This document shows, piece after piece, positions 1 through 8,130 of a stretch of 15,130 nt of DNA. The position numbers and the translations under genes are program-made. Position 1 is the first letter of the stretch. The number at the start of each line of letters is the position of its first letter. The notes below the pieces were generated by a model, which had not been told where the DNA came from, did no database searches, and saw nothing but the letters and a program-made list of their open reading frames with translations. Origin of the DNA: an uncultured Erysipelotrichaceae bacterium (GTDB taxonomy: Bacteria > Bacillota_I > Bacilli_A > Erysipelotrichales > Coprobacillaceae); assembly GCA_945981915.1 (NCBI GenBank), contig CAMFRJ010000007.1, positions 1 through 15,130 on the forward strand, written 5' to 3'.

Positions 1-2484
1 AGCAACATTGTTTTCAATATCATATTTTCCAACTTTGATGGATGTCATTTCATCTTTCATGACGACTTCTGTTTCAATTCCTGCTTCATTGACTGTAAAG
101 GATTGATCAGGAGCATATGTATAACCAGCTGGTGCTTGTTTTTCATGTAAAAGATATGTTTTCCCTGCTGTTAATTGTCCTTTGATCACATGTGGTTTTG
201 CTGATGAGATCCATTCATCAAGTACATGCCCTGTTTCATCTTTTATCTGTAGTTTAGCTCCCACTATTTTTGTTTTACCCGTTTTGTCTGTTTTTGAAAT
301 AGCAACAATGGTCTGTTTTGTTTCATATTCATTTTCAAAATCAACCTTTGAAGGACAAAATATATGCCCTTGTTCATCTTTGACTGTCACCAATAATTGA
401 TTTTTCCCTTCATCTTTAACATCAACTTGTAAATGATATTCAGTTGTGTTTTCTTTAAATTCTTCTAATTGTTCAGGTTTCTTTTCTTTGATGACATAAT
501 AATGTGTTCCTTGGATTACATATTGAAGAGGTGCAAATTGAAATATTTGACCTTCTTGACTTGTAATCAATCCAGATGTAGAGATTGTTTGTAAAGCTTG
601 ATTACCACAGACATAGCGTTCATTGGTTTCATATAATTCAAAAGTAAAGACTTTATCTGTTTGATTTAATCCTGTAATGGTCTTCTTCCCTGAAAAAGTT
701 AAACTTCCTGAAGGGATTGTTGGAGACTCTTGCAATTGATTGGTAATAAGATAACCTGTCTCTTGATTTCCATTGATTGTTGCTTTATATCCTACAGGAG
801 TTCTTTCAACAACATGATAAAGAATTTTTTGACCATTTTGATATTTCAATAACTCATGAGATTCAAATTGTAATTCTCTTTCATCCCAAATACCATTATC
901 TCCAGCATTTAATGAAATCGTTTCAACGATTTCATCATCATGTAAAATATCGAAAGCAATTGCTTTTGGTCTATTAGTAGAGTTGTTGTCATCCCATATT
1001 TTACGGCCTTTGATCTTGATGGTTTCACCTAATGGGAAAACAAAAGGATAATTATGAGCTTCTCCTCCACCACTATTCATGACATACTTGTTGACAATAA
1101 TTGTCCCATTAGTGCTACTTCCCGATCCTTCAACACGTAAAGAAGCTGATGGTGCAAGAATAGAGCCAATCATAACACCTGAAACATTGATTTCATGAAC
1201 TTGTTTGAAATTCCAGATGATATTTTTACTATAATCTCTATTGACTCCATCATCTATTCTTTCAAAAGTACTGTCATTAACAATAGTTGATGCATAATAG
1301 ATGATTTGATGTTTATATGTTTGATGAGATGCATCACCAATGACGTTAATCTGGACCTTTGCATTTTGAGAAACTTGAATATATAATTCTTTGATATCAT
1401 TTAACATAGCAACATCGATTGAAAACACATTGTATTGTTTTTGTCCTGTTAAATATAATTGATTCCCTTCTTTTTTGATAGTTCCATCACTACTTATAGC
1501 GAATAGACTTTCATTTAACTTTTGTAAATCATTTTGTGCATCTTGAAAATATTGAGTTAAACGATCTTTAACATTTGAATCATCATCAAATGTATCATTT
1601 CCTTGAAGCACACGTTGTGTTGTCACTAAACCATTGGCATTACCACTTATCTTATAACCACCATCAGCTAAAGATAAGGTTGCCTGTAGCTCTTGACAGT
1701 TTCCACCAACGGCTAACCAGCCATTGACTTCACTAATATTACCTGAAGCATTGCCATTGATCAAATAACGGACTTCGTTTTTTGTATATGGCATTTCATC
1801 ACCATTGCCAATATGAGAAGGGACAAATCCTAAATTGGTCATTATACTTTCAATATTTAAATTTCCTCCAACTGCCATCTTTCCACAAATTTCAGCTCCT
1901 GCTTGAAAATCTAAATCTGAAAAAGTAAAAACTGCTGATCTTGAAGCTGAACCAAAAGGTAACAGTGCACTAGGATGTTGCCATTTCAAATCATCAACAC
2001 GTGGTTCATAACCATCTGGTAATTCACCACTCCTAACTTTTTTCTGACTTTCCTTTGTCAATTTTTGTTCAAAAAGATCATGCCATTGCTTAGAAAACAC
2101 ATTGTTGTCATCAAGATAACATGTTAATGATCCTGCAATCTGTGTTGACTCTTCAACATTCAAAATATATGTTTTTGTTTCTTGTGCCAATATTGTTTGA
2201 TTCTCCCATGTCACAACATTTTGAGAAACACGATAGCTATCATCTTTACATTGTACAACAACTTGTTGAGGCAAATGAATTTGAAACGAAGATAGTGTCT
2301 TGTCTTCTTGACTTATATTTTGTAGTAAAATAGTCAATTTTGTTTTTTGATTATCTTCTCTTTTTCCATAAACATCAACTTGGATGTCTAAAGAATTCCC
2401 TGTTGCATAAACGCTAGATAAAAAAGAAAAAATCATCATCATTGAAAGAAAACATTGAAAAATAAGCTTAGATTTTTTTAATAT
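1..2484 (-). CDS. Secreted multi-domain adhesin / pilin-like surface protein (C-terminus outside window)
   Basis: The frame is open for 828 codons and runs off the window at position 1, so the C-terminus and any sortase signal are not visible. Residues 1-27 form a signal peptide (KKSK, hydrophobic stretch, VYA before the likely cleavage). Residues about 170-488 resemble the choice-of-anchor A domain (GAEICGKMAVGGN near 195-208; GSILAP and NGTIIVNKY near 439-468). A Cna_B domain follows at about 489-588 (GRKIWDD, ERTPVGY), then an FctA/Spy0128-like pilin isopeptide domain at about 592-722 (GKKTITG, FELYE, FENEYE). A SpaA-type prealbumin-like domain lies at about 728-812 (ISKTDKTG, EKQAPAGY), and another may begin at the edge. 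Such domains normally carry Lys-Asn/Asp isopeptide bonds and build sortase-anchored adhesins or pili. The start is unusual: ATA at 2484-2482 lies 6 nt behind GGAGGA, and the frame holds no ATG, GTG or TTG until codon 15. A c-di-GMP-I riboswitch precedes it. The adhesin role is inferred from the domains. Confidence 0.88.
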   Translation of the reverse strand, partial: MLKKSKLIFQCFLSMMMIFSFLSSVYATGNSLDIQVDVYGKREDNQKTKLTILLQNISQEDKTLSSFQIHLPQQVVVQCKDDSYRVSQNVVTWENQTILAQETKTYILNVEESTQIAGSLTCYLDDNNVFSKQWHDLFEQKLTKESQKKVRSGELPDGYEPRVDDLKWQHPSALLPFGSASRSAVFTFSDLDFQAGAEICGKMAVGGNLNIESIMTNLGFVPSHIGNGDEMPYTKNEVRYLINGNASGNISEVNGWLAVGGNCQELQATLSLADGGYKISGNANGLVTTQRVLQGNDTFDDDSNVKDRLTQYFQDAQNDLQKLNESLFAISSDGTIKKEGNQLYLTGQKQYNVFSIDVAMLNDIKELYIQVSQNAKVQINVIGDASHQTYKHQIIYYASTIVNDSTFERIDDGVNRDYSKNIIWNFKQVHEINVSGVMIGSILAPSASLRVEGSGSSTNGTIIVNKYVMNSGGGEAHNYPFVFPLGETIKIKGRKIWDDNNSTNRPKAIAFDILHDDEIVETISLNAGDNGIWDERELQFESHELLKYQNGQKILYHVVERTPVGYKATINGNQETGYLITNQLQESPTIPSGSLTFSGKKTITGLNQTDKVFTFELYETNERYVCGNQALQTISTSGLITSQEGQIFQFAPLQYVIQGTHYYVIKEKKPEQLEEFKENTTEYHLQVDVKDEGKNQLLVTVKDEQGHIFCPSKVDFENEYETKQTIVAISKTDKTGKTKIVGAKLQIKDETGHVLDEWISSAKPHVIKGQLTAGKTYLLHEKQAPAGYTYAPDQSFTVNEAGIETEVVMKDEMTSIKVGKYDIENNVA

Positions 2485-2500
2485 ATCTGATCCTCCCTAT

Positions 2501-2550
2501 AAATAAAAACAGCCAGTCACAAAAAGTAATCCTACTTCTTGCAACTGGCT
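2501..2550 (-). terminator. Intrinsic terminator of the riboswitch expression platform
   Basis: The minus strand shows an 18-bp hairpin: 5' arm AGCCAGTTGCAAGAAGTA (2550-2533), loop GGAT, 3' arm TACTTTTTGTGACTGGCT (2528-2511), with three G-U pairs and no mismatch. GTTTTTATTT follows. The first ten bases of the 5' arm are the conserved 3' strand of the aptamer, so aptamer and terminator cannot form together. This predicts antitermination (ON) when ligand is bound. The terminator lies just upstream of the adhesin ribosome-binding site. Confidence 0.85.
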
Positions 2551-2605
2551 ACCTTAAAATGTTTAAGGCCCTATAGCTTTGCGTGGTCTATTCAACCTTG
2601 CCTAG
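2541..2605 (-). promoter_or_regulatory. c-di-GMP-I (GEMM-I) riboswitch aptamer
   Basis: On the minus strand the leader contains GGCAA, a short hairpin GGTT-GAATA-GACC (2597-2585) and the hallmark ACGCAAAGC (2584-2576). Next come TATAGGGCC, a perfect 7-bp hairpin CCTTAAA-CAT-TTTAAGG (2568-2552) and GTAGCCAGTTGC (2552-2541). This order and these conserved strings match the GEMM-I family as found in Firmicutes. The G that recognises one guanine of c-di-GMP in the Vibrio Vc2 structure appears to be kept in the GGCAA segment, which favours c-di-GMP over cGAMP. That alignment was done by eye. The first hairpin is shorter than usual and has a five-base loop, so covariance scoring would be useful. 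Confidence 0.85.
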
Positions 2606-2639
2606 ACAAATAATAGCACGTTTGTTTTTTATTTGTCTA
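2603..2639 (-). promoter_or_regulatory. Adhesin promoter overlapped by a 10-bp inverted repeat
   Basis: On the minus strand there is a -35 TAGACA (2639-2634), an 18-nt spacer and a -10 TATTAT (2615-2610) preceded by TG at the extended -10 position. Transcription would then start at about 2603, right at the aptamer. The arms TAGACAAATA (2639-2630) and TATTTGTCTA (2612-2603) are perfect inverted repeats 17 nt apart. One covers the -35 and the other covers the -10 and start site, so this may be an operator. Confidence 0.6.
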
Positions 2640-2651
2640 TACAAGTTTGTT

Positions 2652-2689
2652 AAAATATAAAAAAATAGTATCTCGTTTGAGATACTATT
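2652..2689 (-). terminator. Intrinsic terminator of the permease / aminopeptidase / membrane protein operon
   Basis: A perfect 11-bp hairpin, AATAGTATCTC-AAAC-GAGATACTATT as read on the minus strand, covers the TAG stop of the upstream gene. A run of seven T follows. It separates that operon from the riboswitch-controlled adhesin. Confidence 0.9.
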
Positions 2690-3329
2690 GATTCAATTCT
2701 TTTTCAAATATTTTTTTATTTGTGAAAAAAGCAGCTACTAAAATGACAAAAGTGATATCAAAAGGATAGGCATACATCAAAAATACAACGATAAATGATA
2801 CAATAAAACCGACTATTTCAATAATGATAGGTTTCATAGATAATTGATAGCGTTTGATCGTAGCAATTTCATTACTTAAATTATGTATAGCAATACAAAG
2901 TGAAACGACTGCAACCAACGAATCAACATAAAAATGAATAAGATAATGATTTGATAACAATTCTTTGACAAATAGAAGAACAAGATAGCCACACATAGTC
3001 ATCCATAGACCAGCAATCGTATAATGAATCTGATCATGATTTTTAATGGCAGCTATGCGTTCTTTATATTTGATCTTTCTATCAATTTTATCGATAAAAG
3101 TCTGTTTGTTTTTGCCAAGCAGAAGTGTAGGATCATGAATAGTTTCTTGATGTTTGATCATTTCATCTAAAATATCGCTCATCAAAATATTTGTTTTGAC
3201 GATATTCTTTGATTTTTTGAGTAATGATTTTTCAATATCTTGAAAATATGAAAAATAATCAGCATTTAAACGTTTGATTTTTTCTTTATTATCATATGTG
3301 ATATCATATGTCTTCTGTTCTTTTTTCAT
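2685..3329 (-). CDS. Four-helix membrane protein of unknown function
   Basis: This 214-aa protein is not recognised as a member of any named family. Residues 1-100 are charged, lack a signal peptide and look helical, possibly coiled-coil, suggesting a cytoplasmic domain. Four hydrophobic segments follow at about 103-123, 132-151, 167-187 and 191-203, and the protein ends in a short lysine-rich tail. The ATG overlaps the stop of the aminopeptidase gene by one base (TAATG). Translation is therefore probably coupled, and the protein is made together with the peptidase and the amino-acid permease. That context hints at a role in the same nutrient-uptake process, but nothing in the sequence gives a mechanism. 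The gene ends inside a terminator hairpin. Confidence 0.85.
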   Translation of the reverse strand: MKKEQKTYDITYDNKEKIKRLNADYFSYFQDIEKSLLKKSKNIVKTNILMSDILDEMIKHQETIHDPTLLLGKNKQTFIDKIDRKIKYKERIAAIKNHDQIHYTIAGLWMTMCGYLVLLFVKELLSNHYLIHFYVDSLVAVVSLCIAIHNLSNEIATIKRYQLSMKPIIIEIVGFIVSFIVVFLMYAYPFDITFVILVAAFFTNKKIFEKELNQ

Positions 3330-6256: not shown

Positions 6257-6288
6257 AAAAAACAGAGATTACCAACTTTGTATCTCTG
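6257..6288 (-). terminator. Intrinsic terminator after the diguanylate cyclase
   Basis: CAGAGAT and ATCTCTG form a 7-bp stem around a 12-nt loop that includes the stop codon. TTTTTT follows. A slightly longer alternative stem (AGAGATTA/TAATCTCT) shares the 3' arm. Confidence 0.75.
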
Positions 6289-7495
6289 CCTTTAATCTCT
6301 TTTTATTATCTTTTTTACACTGATACATTAGATCATCAGCCTCTTTCAAAATATCTTTCATAATTCGATGATCTTGACCTTTGACTTCCACCAAGCCATA
6401 GCTAAAACTTGTTGGATAATCCTTGTGATGTAAAGTGAAGAAACTCTGATAGACAGCCTTCATTTTTTGACGAGCCAATGGAAAAGGACATTGATTTAAA
6501 ATTAGTGCAAATTCATCTCCACCAATTCTTGCAAATACATCATTATTTCTAAAACTCTTCTTAATTAATGAAACAAAAGATCTAATGTATTCATCACCTT
6601 CTAAATGAGAATAGTGATCATTGACCATTTTTAATCCATCAAGATCCATATAACAAAAAACAAAATTTTCTTGTTTATCTAATAATAACTGAAAATATTC
6701 ATCAAAGAAGACACGATTATAGATTCCATAGACATCATGATATGCCTTATTTGTCAAATCGTCTTCCTGTAGTTTCTCTTTGGTAATATCATAAACAATA
6801 TGCATATAACTTTCTTGACCACACCATTCAATCTTAAAAGAGTTGATTGAATAATATTGACCATTATCTCGCGCTTCCCAAATTTCATAATCTTCTTTTT
6901 CCCAATTGACAATACGATGATAAAATGGAAGATCTTGAGGATGAGAAAAAATACCACTTTGATCATTCTGGATTCCTTCGTTGGAATAAATAATCTTATC
7001 ATGCCATCTATCAACAACAAGAATTAATTCATTTCTTTTTCTTGACATTTCCACCAGAAGATCATTATAACTTTCAATCATTTGTGCTTTTTTTCTTGTT
7101 TTTTCTGCTTCTTTTTTTAATTCTTCTTCTCTATATTTCAATTGTTCGGTCATCTTATTGAAAGCAAGTGAAAATTCTCCTAAATAAGATACTTCCTGAT
7201 TGTAATCACCTTGAGCAACCTGCTTTGCCTGCCATGTCAAATGATTTAAATTAGCATGTAGATTTTTTAAGTTGGAACAGAGATAATTGTCACGAGAAGG
7301 CATCTTCGCTGAAAGATTCCCTTGTGAAAGGTCAGCGCTATAATGTCTCATTTCTTCAACTTGTTGTTGTAAAACTTCTAAACCTAAAGCCAATTTTTGA
7401 TTTTCTGCTTTGAGCTGTTGAAAATCAGGCTTTTTGATATGATCATCATAAAGTATACTTTTTAAATATTGAAAAAGAACTTCTGTATCATTCAT
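6269..7495 (-). CDS. Soluble HAMP-like / PAS / GGDEF diguanylate cyclase
   Basis: This enzyme makes c-di-GMP from two GTP. Of its 408 residues, about 24-52 form a coiled coil and about 53-118 resemble a HAMP-type signalling helix pair (QGNLSAKMP, AQGDYNQEV, FNKMTEQL). Helical linker 120-155 leads to a PAS-like domain at about 156-240. The GGDEF domain spans about 245-405. The active-site loop GGDEF is intact at 325-329, the metal-binding DLDG lies at 284-287, and the inhibitory I-site RNND at 316-319 has the standard five-residue gap. The enzyme is thus predicted active and feedback-inhibited. There is no membrane segment. Its ATG overlaps the V4R gene by 8 nt, so the V4R protein is the likely input partner. 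The c-di-GMP riboswitch in this window is a plausible downstream target, but this is inference. Confidence 0.93.
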   Translation of the reverse strand: MNDTEVLFQYLKSILYDDHIKKPDFQQLKAENQKLALGLEVLQQQVEEMRHYSADLSQGNLSAKMPSRDNYLCSNLKNLHANLNHLTWQAKQVAQGDYNQEVSYLGEFSLAFNKMTEQLKYREEELKKEAEKTRKKAQMIESYNDLLVEMSRKRNELILVVDRWHDKIIYSNEGIQNDQSGIFSHPQDLPFYHRIVNWEKEDYEIWEARDNGQYYSINSFKIEWCGQESYMHIVYDITKEKLQEDDLTNKAYHDVYGIYNRVFFDEYFQLLLDKQENFVFCYMDLDGLKMVNDHYSHLEGDEYIRSFVSLIKKSFRNNDVFARIGGDEFALILNQCPFPLARQKMKAVYQSFFTLHHKDYPTSFSYGLVEVKGQDHRIMKDILKEADDLMYQCKKDNKKRLKAEIQSW

Positions 7496-8036
7496 GATTT
7501 GTTATCTCCTCTACCATTGCTTGGAAACGACAAACACGATCACCTGTCGCCCAGCAATCGACTTCGATCACACTGTAAGATTTACCTGTATATTTTGATA
7601 AAACACCACTAAAAAAACCTTCATCATAGTTACAGACCGTTTCACCAATAAATGGTAATCCCGAACAATCTGCATCTTCTGATACAGTTAAGACAATCTT
7701 CCCAGTCTTTTCATCATAATCCTCAATTCTTAAGATACCTATTTTTAAATGTTTTAATTCTTTTTGTAATTGAGCAACAAACTCATGAAAAGGTAAGTGA
7801 AGATCTAATATATGACTTGCAAAATACACACCTGAACGATATCCCGCTTTTCTAAATATATCTATTTGAACATCTTTTCCAAATTGTTCCATCAGTTCTA
7901 TTTTTAAAGAATATTCTAACAACCTATATGTCACAATAGAAATATGATCACCTAAATTTCCTCTACCATCTTTACCATAACACATATAATCATCTAATGT
8001 GAATTCTTGATTATCTTCAAAAAAAATATTCTTCAT
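7488..8036 (-). CDS. V4R-domain sensor protein
   Basis: A cytosolic 182-aa protein. The C-terminal half matches the V4R (4-vinyl reductase) small-molecule or redox sensing domain: GKSYSVIEVDCWATGDRVC at about 151-169, ending CRF. Four cysteines (about 124, 135, 161, 169) could bind metal or act as a thiol switch; V4R domains serve as redox sensors in archaeal MsvR regulators and as ligand domains in XylR-type activators. The start is the ATG at 8036 with AAGGGG 7 nt upstream. An upstream in-frame GTG at 8093 lies in the promoter region and is rejected. It has no output domain of its own and overlaps the GGDEF gene, so it probably tunes that enzyme. The ligand is unknown. Confidence 0.85.
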   Translation of the reverse strand: MKNIFFEDNQEFTLDDYMCYGKDGRGNLGDHISIVTYRLLEYSLKIELMEQFGKDVQIDIFRKAGYRSGVYFASHILDLHLPFHEFVAQLQKELKHLKIGILRIEDYDEKTGKIVLTVSEDADCSGLPFIGETVCNYDEGFFSGVLSKYTGKSYSVIEVDCWATGDRVCRFQAMVEEITNHE

Positions 8037-8073
8037 AACAACGCCCCTTATTTTTACTGATATATCTATAAAT

Positions 8074-8082
8074 ACTATAGCA
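8074..8082 (-). promoter_or_regulatory. Extended -10 promoter of the V4R-GGDEF operon
   Basis: The minus strand reads TGCTATAGT, an extended -10 element (8082-8074), about 38 nt before the V4R start codon. No good -35 is seen at 17 nt, in keeping with extended -10 use or activator dependence. An alternative pair is GTGACA (8093-8088) with TATAGA (8070-8065), also 17 nt apart. Confidence 0.5.
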
Positions 8083-8130
8083 CAAATTGTCACAAAAGTA
8101 TTAATATAATCAAAAAAGAATGTTTTACAA

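What the first reader, a model, noticed from the sequence alone, without database searches (positions are those of the whole stretch)
2501..2612. c-di-GMP-I riboswitch built as an ON switch for a surface adhesin
The GEMM-I aptamer strand GTAGCCAGTTGC also forms the 5' arm of an 18-bp terminator that ends just before the adhesin ribosome-binding site. Ligand binding should block the terminator, so high c-di-GMP would turn on the adhesin. Many GEMM-I switches in Clostridia (for example upstream of flagellar genes) are OFF switches, so the ON logic on a choice-of-anchor/Cna_B/SpaA adhesin is worth testing.
Basis: partly seen in the sequence, partly recalled or inferred. Interest (0 to 1): 0.75.

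Follow-up and report, generated by a model that had tools for sequence, protein, structure and literature searches.

The report
c-di-GMP riboswitch before a surface adhesin
A gut bacterium carries an RNA sensor for the signal molecule c-di-GMP in front of a surface-adhesion gene, laid out so that the signal should switch the gene on; the layout is already known from Bacillus, but here one arm of the sensor is unusually short and the gene lacks a normal start codon.

Summary
Window 2612-2537 (minus) is a c-di-GMP-I (GEMM-I) aptamer by Rfam (37.7 bits, cut-off 35) and by a model built from 28 family relatives without it (47.4 bits). Its last ten core bases, AGCCAGTTGC (2550-2541), are also the base of an 18-bp terminator (2550-2511) that ends just before a Shine-Dalgarno site. 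Aptamer and terminator exclude each other, so ligand should give read-through: an ON switch. By strict criteria 4 of 29 family loci have this overlap, and all 4 precede Cna_B adhesins. It is not a new kind: Bc2 RNA of Bacillus thuringiensis is a proven class I ON switch on a Cna_B collagen adhesin, and pilM has the same exclusive layout. Two things were missed. P2 is shortened and its loop is GAATA, where 28 of 28 relatives have GAAA; an exact pattern for short P2 matched 1 of 315 genomes of the order, this one. And the codon at the adhesin's expected start is ATA. So the wiring is well supported, but ligand response and adhesin output in this strain are open; a decayed, always-terminated copy is the main rival.

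The parts
2664..2689 (-). Terminator of the upstream DUF1129-like gene (2685-3329), insulating the leader
   Evidence: 11-pair stem, loop of 4, T-run
2610..2639 (-). Promoter-like pair TAGACA-18-TATTAT with TG before the -10; predicted start about A2603/G2602, next to the first conserved aptamer base
   Evidence: 10 of 12 matches, but the scan found 3 sites in the region against 3.3 in shuffles, so it is no evidence by itself; L029 has TATAAT 6 bases before its aptamer core
2541..2602 (-). GEMM-I aptamer core GGCAAGG...GTTGC (Rfam match 2537-2612). G20, A47 and C92 equivalents are G2602, A2580 and C2541 (numbering recalled)
   Evidence: RF01051 37.7 bits; relatives-only model 47.4 bits
2585..2597 (-). 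Shortened P2: GGTT-GAATA-GACC, against about six pairs and GAAA in relatives
   Evidence: 28 of 28 relatives have GAAA; short form in 1 of 315 genomes by exact pattern
2541..2550 (-). Switching strand AGCCAGTTGC, shared by the aptamer (3' side of P3 and the C92 equivalent) and the terminator
2501..2550 (-). Intrinsic terminator: 18-bp stem, GGAT loop, T-rich tail
2492..2496 (-). Shine-Dalgarno site GGAGG
   Evidence: read from sequence
1..2484 (-). Adhesin frame (pAdhesive_15, Cna_B, FctA, SpaA), cut at the contig end. First in-frame codon at normal spacing is ATA (2484-2482), after an in-frame TAG (2499-2497); first canonical start is ATG 2442

Best explanation
A member of the c-di-GMP-I (GEMM-I) riboswitch family wired as a transcriptional ON switch for a surface adhesin. 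Shown by sequence: the aptamer's 3' strand (2550-2541) is the base of a strong intrinsic terminator, so the two folds cannot coexist. Inferred: RNA polymerase starts near 2603 and has made the aptamer core by 2541. If c-di-GMP binds within the next 25-30 bases, the strand stays in the aptamer and polymerase passes the T-run into the adhesin gene. Without ligand, the hairpin seeded by AAGAAGTA/TACTTTTT invades the aptamer strand from about 2517 on and transcription stops near 2505. The finished terminator is far more stable than the aptamer fold, so ligand must act by kinetics. c-di-GMP rather than cGAMP is predicted because the position equivalent to G20 is G. Output in this strain may be weak, because P2 is short and the start codon is not canonical.
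For: Rfam match and relatives-only model. Mutually exclusive folds: forcing the aptamer costs 0.4-2.2 kcal/mol until the transcript end reaches 2520, then 19.1 at 2508. The same overlap stands at L006, L007 and L029, each before a Cna_B adhesin. L029, in another genus, shares the strand AAGGTAGCCAGTTGCA, a nearby -10 element and an adhesin with a related N-terminus (26% over 121 residues) and pAdhesive_15. The genome has 17 GGDEF matches. Bc2 and pilM show that this layout works as ON (PMC4933901, PMC9262584, passages).
Against: P2 and its loop depart from 28 of 28 relatives, and the short form was found only here among 315 genomes by exact pattern. Lowest Rfam score of the 29 untruncated loci. 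No canonical start codon. In one search the terminator's 3' arm still pairs with non-aptamer bases at a mean 0.35 in the window and 0.83 in L029 when the aptamer is removed, so the bound state is not wholly clean, for L029 above all. The promoter scan is no better than shuffles. The 5 same-genus genomes carry the DUF1129 neighbour, but none of their RF01051 matches lies on the same contig as it, so conserved position gives no support.
Confidence: 0.7

Rival explanations
1. A decayed copy: the aptamer no longer binds well enough to compete, the terminator forms nearly always, and together with the missing canonical start codon the adhesin is silent or nearly so in this strain.
For: Short P2 and non-GAAA loop against 28 of 28 relatives; short form in 1 of 315 genomes; ATA at the expected start; terminator favoured by about 19 kcal/mol once made.
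Against: Ligand-contact equivalents are kept and the terminator is perfect. The frame is open for 814 codons to the contig end, and a relative protein with 45 member sequences is 98% identical over 476 residues.
Confidence: 0.2
2. OFF switch: ligand-bound aptamer favours termination, as in C. difficile class I switches.
For: Class I switches in C. difficile are OFF (PMC6366702, passages). 20 of 29 family loci have terminators that do not overlap the aptamer, the layout expected of OFF switches.
Against: With the aptamer forced, no strong hairpin adjoins the T-run in the window; the only strong terminator needs the aptamer's own strand.
Confidence: 0.04
3. The aptamer prefers 3',3'-cGAMP to c-di-GMP.
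For: pilM, a c-GAMP riboswitch with a highly similar aptamer, is an ON switch of this layout (PMC9262584, passages). L006 and L007, two of the four overlap-type loci, have A at the G20 position, a change linked to cGAMP sensing (recalled).
Against: The window has G at that position (G2602). GGDEF genes are plentiful; enzymes making cGAMP were not looked for.
Confidence: 0.04

Closest known systems
Bc2 RNA upstream of cap/cbpA, Bacillus thuringiensis (PMC4933901 and PMC7423583, passages read)
   Same: Class I c-di-GMP riboswitch, terminator next to the gene, ON by read-through, target a cell-wall adhesin with Cna_B repeats.
   Different: Different phylum branch and adhesin head (collagen-binding N domains there, pAdhesive_15 here). 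Function proven there, not here. No short P2 or missing start codon appears in the passages read; its sequence was not compared.
pilM riboswitch, Geobacter metallireducens (PMC9262584, passages read)
   Same: Aptamer and terminator mutually exclusive; terminator captures the C that pairs with ligand; ON.
   Different: Senses cGAMP and controls pilus genes.
G028 locus L029 (relative found here, another genus of the family)
   Same: Same switching strand AAGGTAGCCAGTTGCA, overlap terminator, -10 element 6 bases from the aptamer core, adhesin with pAdhesive_15 and Cna_B.
   Different: Full-length P2 with GAAA, ordinary ATG start, and a second GEMM-I aptamer (L026) starting 273 bases upstream.
C. 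difficile class II switches Cdi-2-1 and Cdi-2-3 (PMC6366702, passages read)
   Same: c-di-GMP turns on sortase-dependent surface proteins predicted to be adhesins.
   Different: Another aptamer class (c-di-GMP-II).

Membership tests
c-di-GMP-I (GEMM-I) riboswitch, RF01051 | Covariance-model match above the gathering score | tested here: met
   37.7 bits against 35
c-di-GMP-I (GEMM-I) riboswitch, RF01051 | Ligand-contact positions G20, A47, C92 (numbering recalled) | tested here: met
   G2602, A2580, C2541 in the alignments
c-di-GMP-I (GEMM-I) riboswitch, RF01051 | P2 helix with GNRA tetraloop that docks on P3 (docking recalled) | tested here: not met
   4-pair P2 with GAATA; 28 of 28 relatives have GAAA. 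A common but not strictly required feature, hence membership by descent is kept
c-di-GMP-I (GEMM-I) riboswitch, RF01051 | Binds c-di-GMP | not testable with these tools
   needs in-line probing or ITC
ON-type transcriptional riboswitch | Aptamer fold and terminator share a strand | tested here: met
   AGCCAGTTGC 2550-2541
ON-type transcriptional riboswitch | Ligand raises read-through | not testable with these tools
   needs single-round transcription
Sortase-anchored Cna_B/SpaA adhesin | Adhesive head and isopeptide-type stalk domains | tested here: met
   pAdhesive_15, Cna_B, FctA, SpaA above cut-offs
Sortase-anchored Cna_B/SpaA adhesin | Signal peptide and C-terminal anchor | tested here: inconclusive
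   Signal-like start without a canonical start codon, no predictor run; the window ends inside the gene. P0001, 98% identical, ends in a VDTGD-like motif, hydrophobic stretch and lysines by eye

The most novel reading that the evidence does not exclude
A working minimal GEMM-I aptamer that has given up the P2 tetraloop contact kept by all 28 relatives compared, is transcribed with no 5' leader so that the RNA begins at or next to the ligand-contacting G, and reports to an adhesin that starts at AUA: a low-output, kinetically decided ON switch.
Probability: 0.15. Interest if true: 0.55.

Novelty: new member of a known kind. Interest (0 to 1): 0.3.

Why it matters
It adds a gut relative of Faecalibacillus and Thomasclavelia to the bacteria in which c-di-GMP is predicted to turn on a cell-wall adhesin through a class I riboswitch, and it suggests a family-level pattern: overlap-type ON switches on Cna_B adhesins, non-overlapping terminators on most other targets examined. 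If the short-P2 aptamer works, it is a natural test of how much of the GEMM-I tertiary fold is needed for switching.

Tried and rejected
OFF switch: disfavoured, because with the aptamer forced no strong hairpin adjoins the T-run. cGAMP sensor: disfavoured, G2602 is G. Chance hairpin: rejected. The upstream 11-bp inverted repeat as an RNA part of the switch: set aside, because the predicted start lies at its end; as an invertible promoter: rejected, its arms are only 15 bases apart.

Led nowhere: 2.7 kb against plasmids, no match. The adhesin in genome contigs, no relative. A protein search with its N-terminal 160 residues, none of 249 candidates at E 0.001; with residues 1-480, P0001 and one weak hit among the 7999 candidates scored. 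No other strain of the species was available, so the short P2 and the ATA codon could not be checked for polymorphism or assembly error.

Limits of the counts: the looser hairpin scan also gave imperfect hairpins overlapping the aptamer at L003, L004, L005, L012, L016, L018, L020, L021, L022 and L024; the 4 of 29 rests on the stricter limits, under which 5 of 29 (L002, L004, L008, L009, L027) had no terminator called. L030, cut by a contig end, was dropped before the 29. Of the 25 non-overlap loci, 21 had a downstream protein scanned in Pfam, none with Cna_B, but many were cut about 1.5 kb from the riboswitch; L009, L011 and L022 were not scanned, and L026 precedes the same adhesin as L029. 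L006 and L007 are close homologues in one genus, so the four are not independent.

Full report
What is there. On the minus strand of window 2640-2480 lies a compact leader: a promoter-like pair TAGACA-18-TATTAT with TG before the -10 (2639-2610), 7 bases later the aptamer core GGCAAGG... (2602-2541), an 18-bp terminator whose 5' arm begins inside the aptamer (2550-2533 with 2528-2511, then 2510-2501 T-rich), GGAGG at 2496-2492 and the adhesin frame. The upstream DUF1129-like gene ends in its own terminator at 2689-2664. The promoter scan was no better than shuffles (3 sites against 3.3).

Is the aptamer real? Rfam gives RF01051 at 37.7 bits, threshold 35. In the family, 13 of 43 genomes had matches, 30 matches in all; in the genus 4 of 6. 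I dropped L030, cut by a contig end, and compared 29; the window is the lowest-scoring of these. A model built from the 28 others scored the window at 47.4 bits in a 53.5-kb search, against 12.8 for the next window match. RNAalifold on the 28 gave the GEMM-I fold, 11 of 15 pairs with both-side changes. Descent from GEMM-I is secure. The equivalents of G20, A47 and C92 are G2602, A2580 and C2541 (numbering recalled; PMC9049102, of which I saw only the listing and abstract start, names G20 and C92 as conserved).

How it should switch. Forcing the aptamer pairs costs 0.4-2.2 kcal/mol over the free fold while the transcript end lies between 2541 and 2520, then 5.2 at 2517, 11.4 at 2514 and 19.1 at 2508. 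The hairpin AAGAAGTA/TACTTTTT can form beside an intact aptamer and then invade 2550-2541. The decision therefore falls within about 25-30 bases of transcription and must be kinetic. This is the layout described for pilM, where aptamer and terminator are mutually exclusive and the terminator captures the C that pairs with ligand (PMC9262584, passages read). A ligand-held aptamer should give read-through: ON.

Family pattern. By strict criteria 4 of 29 loci have a terminator overlapping the aptamer strand (the window, L006, L007, L029), 20 have one that does not overlap, and 5 have none called; looser criteria blur this line. All 4 precede proteins with Cna_B domains. Of the other 25, 21 downstream proteins were scanned and none had Cna_B; they include NPCBM proteins, solute-binding proteins, CAP proteins, papain-like peptidases, a GGDEF protein, a protein with a pilin-type N-terminus and an M60 peptidase. 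Many were read over only about 1.5 kb. L026 is a tandem copy upstream of L029 and precedes the same adhesin. L029 is the closest counterpart: same AAGGTAGCCAGTTGCA strand, -10 element 6 bases from the aptamer core (7 in the window; among each locus's top promoter candidate only L007, at 1, is nearer), and an adhesin with pAdhesive_15, Cna_B and a related N-terminus, 26% over 121 residues. Against the simple reading, with the aptamer taken away the terminator's 3' arm still pairs with other bases at a mean 0.83 in L029 and 0.35 in the window.

First, P2. The 28 relatives fold with six P2 pairs (a few of them broken in single loci) and all have GAAA; the window has GGTT-GAATA-GACC, and two bases invariant in the 28, the third A of GGCAAA and the G before ACGC, are G and C. 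An exact pattern for a short P2 matched 1 of 315 genomes of the order, this one; the normal-length pattern matched 17 places in 14 of 315; inexact forms would be missed by both. Docking of the P2 loop on P3 (recalled) should be lost or altered. Second, the start. After an in-frame TAG (2499-2497) the codon 7 bases after GGAGG is ATA (2484-2482); L029 has an ATG at that spacing, and another two codons earlier. The next ATG, 2442, has no Shine-Dalgarno by eye and would drop the charged start of the signal-like peptide. The frame is otherwise open to the contig end, and P0001, a cluster of 45 sequences, matches 476 residues at 98%. Both oddities come from one draft contig.

The organism. The nearest named contigs for the M18 peptidase gene are [Clostridium] spiroforme An567 (84%), an uncultured Firmicutes bin (82%), a Bacillota bin (80%), Faecalibacillus (79-80%) and Thomasclavelia (72-74%) (best 80 of 174 kept). 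The genome is 73% complete with 17 GGDEF matches, one in the window at 6269-7495. The five same-genus genomes have the DUF1129 neighbour, but none of their RF01051 matches is on the same contig as it, so this riboswitch-adhesin unit is not seen at that place in them.

Comparison with the known. Bc2 RNA in B. thuringiensis is a class I ON switch that lets transcription through into cap (PMC4933901, passages read); the gene, cbpA, encodes a 2187-residue LPXTG protein with 17 Cna_B repeats (PMC7423583, passages read). C. difficile class II switches turn on two sortase-dependent surface proteins, and its seven functional class I switches are OFF (PMC6366702, passages read). A search for c-di-GMP, riboswitch, Erysipelotrich and adhesin (161 papers with at least three terms, 10 listed) showed no listed paper with Erysipelotrich; that is not proof that none exists. 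The finding is a new member of a known kind with an unusual aptamer.

Verdict. Observation confirmed; ON wiring well supported by anatomy; ligand response and adhesin output in this strain open: about 0.7 for a working ON switch, about 0.2 for a decayed copy.

Noticed in passing
window 2639-2629 and 2613-2603: A perfect 11-bp inverted repeat (TAGACAAATAA / TTATTTGTCTA, 15 bases apart) covers the predicted -35 and reaches from the -10 to the predicted start; possibly a protein operator, possibly chance in AT-rich DNA (one search shows it as the first hairpin).
   Followed up: no
window 6269-8093: A GGDEF protein (6269-7495) overlaps the end of a V4R-domain gene (7488-8093), a possible local c-di-GMP source with a sensor partner.
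   Followed up: no
L006, L007, L025, L028 aptamers: 4 of 28 relatives have A where Vc2 has G20 (mapping recalled), a position linked to cGAMP sensing; L006 and L007 are overlap-type switches before Cna_B adhesins.
   Followed up: partly
L149 6575-6650 and 6848-6925 (L026, L029): Two GEMM-I aptamers 273 bases apart, the first with a non-overlapping and the second with an overlapping terminator, before one adhesin.
   Followed up: partly
L015: GEMM-I aptamer upstream of a GGDEF gene, a possible feedback loop.
   Followed up: no
L019 aptamer: GCCAAA with GACGGAAAG: the core G-C pair is swapped to C-G on both sides, a compensatory change.
   Followed up: no
L018, L023, L028 leaders: Two terminator-like hairpins in a row after the aptamer.
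   Followed up: no
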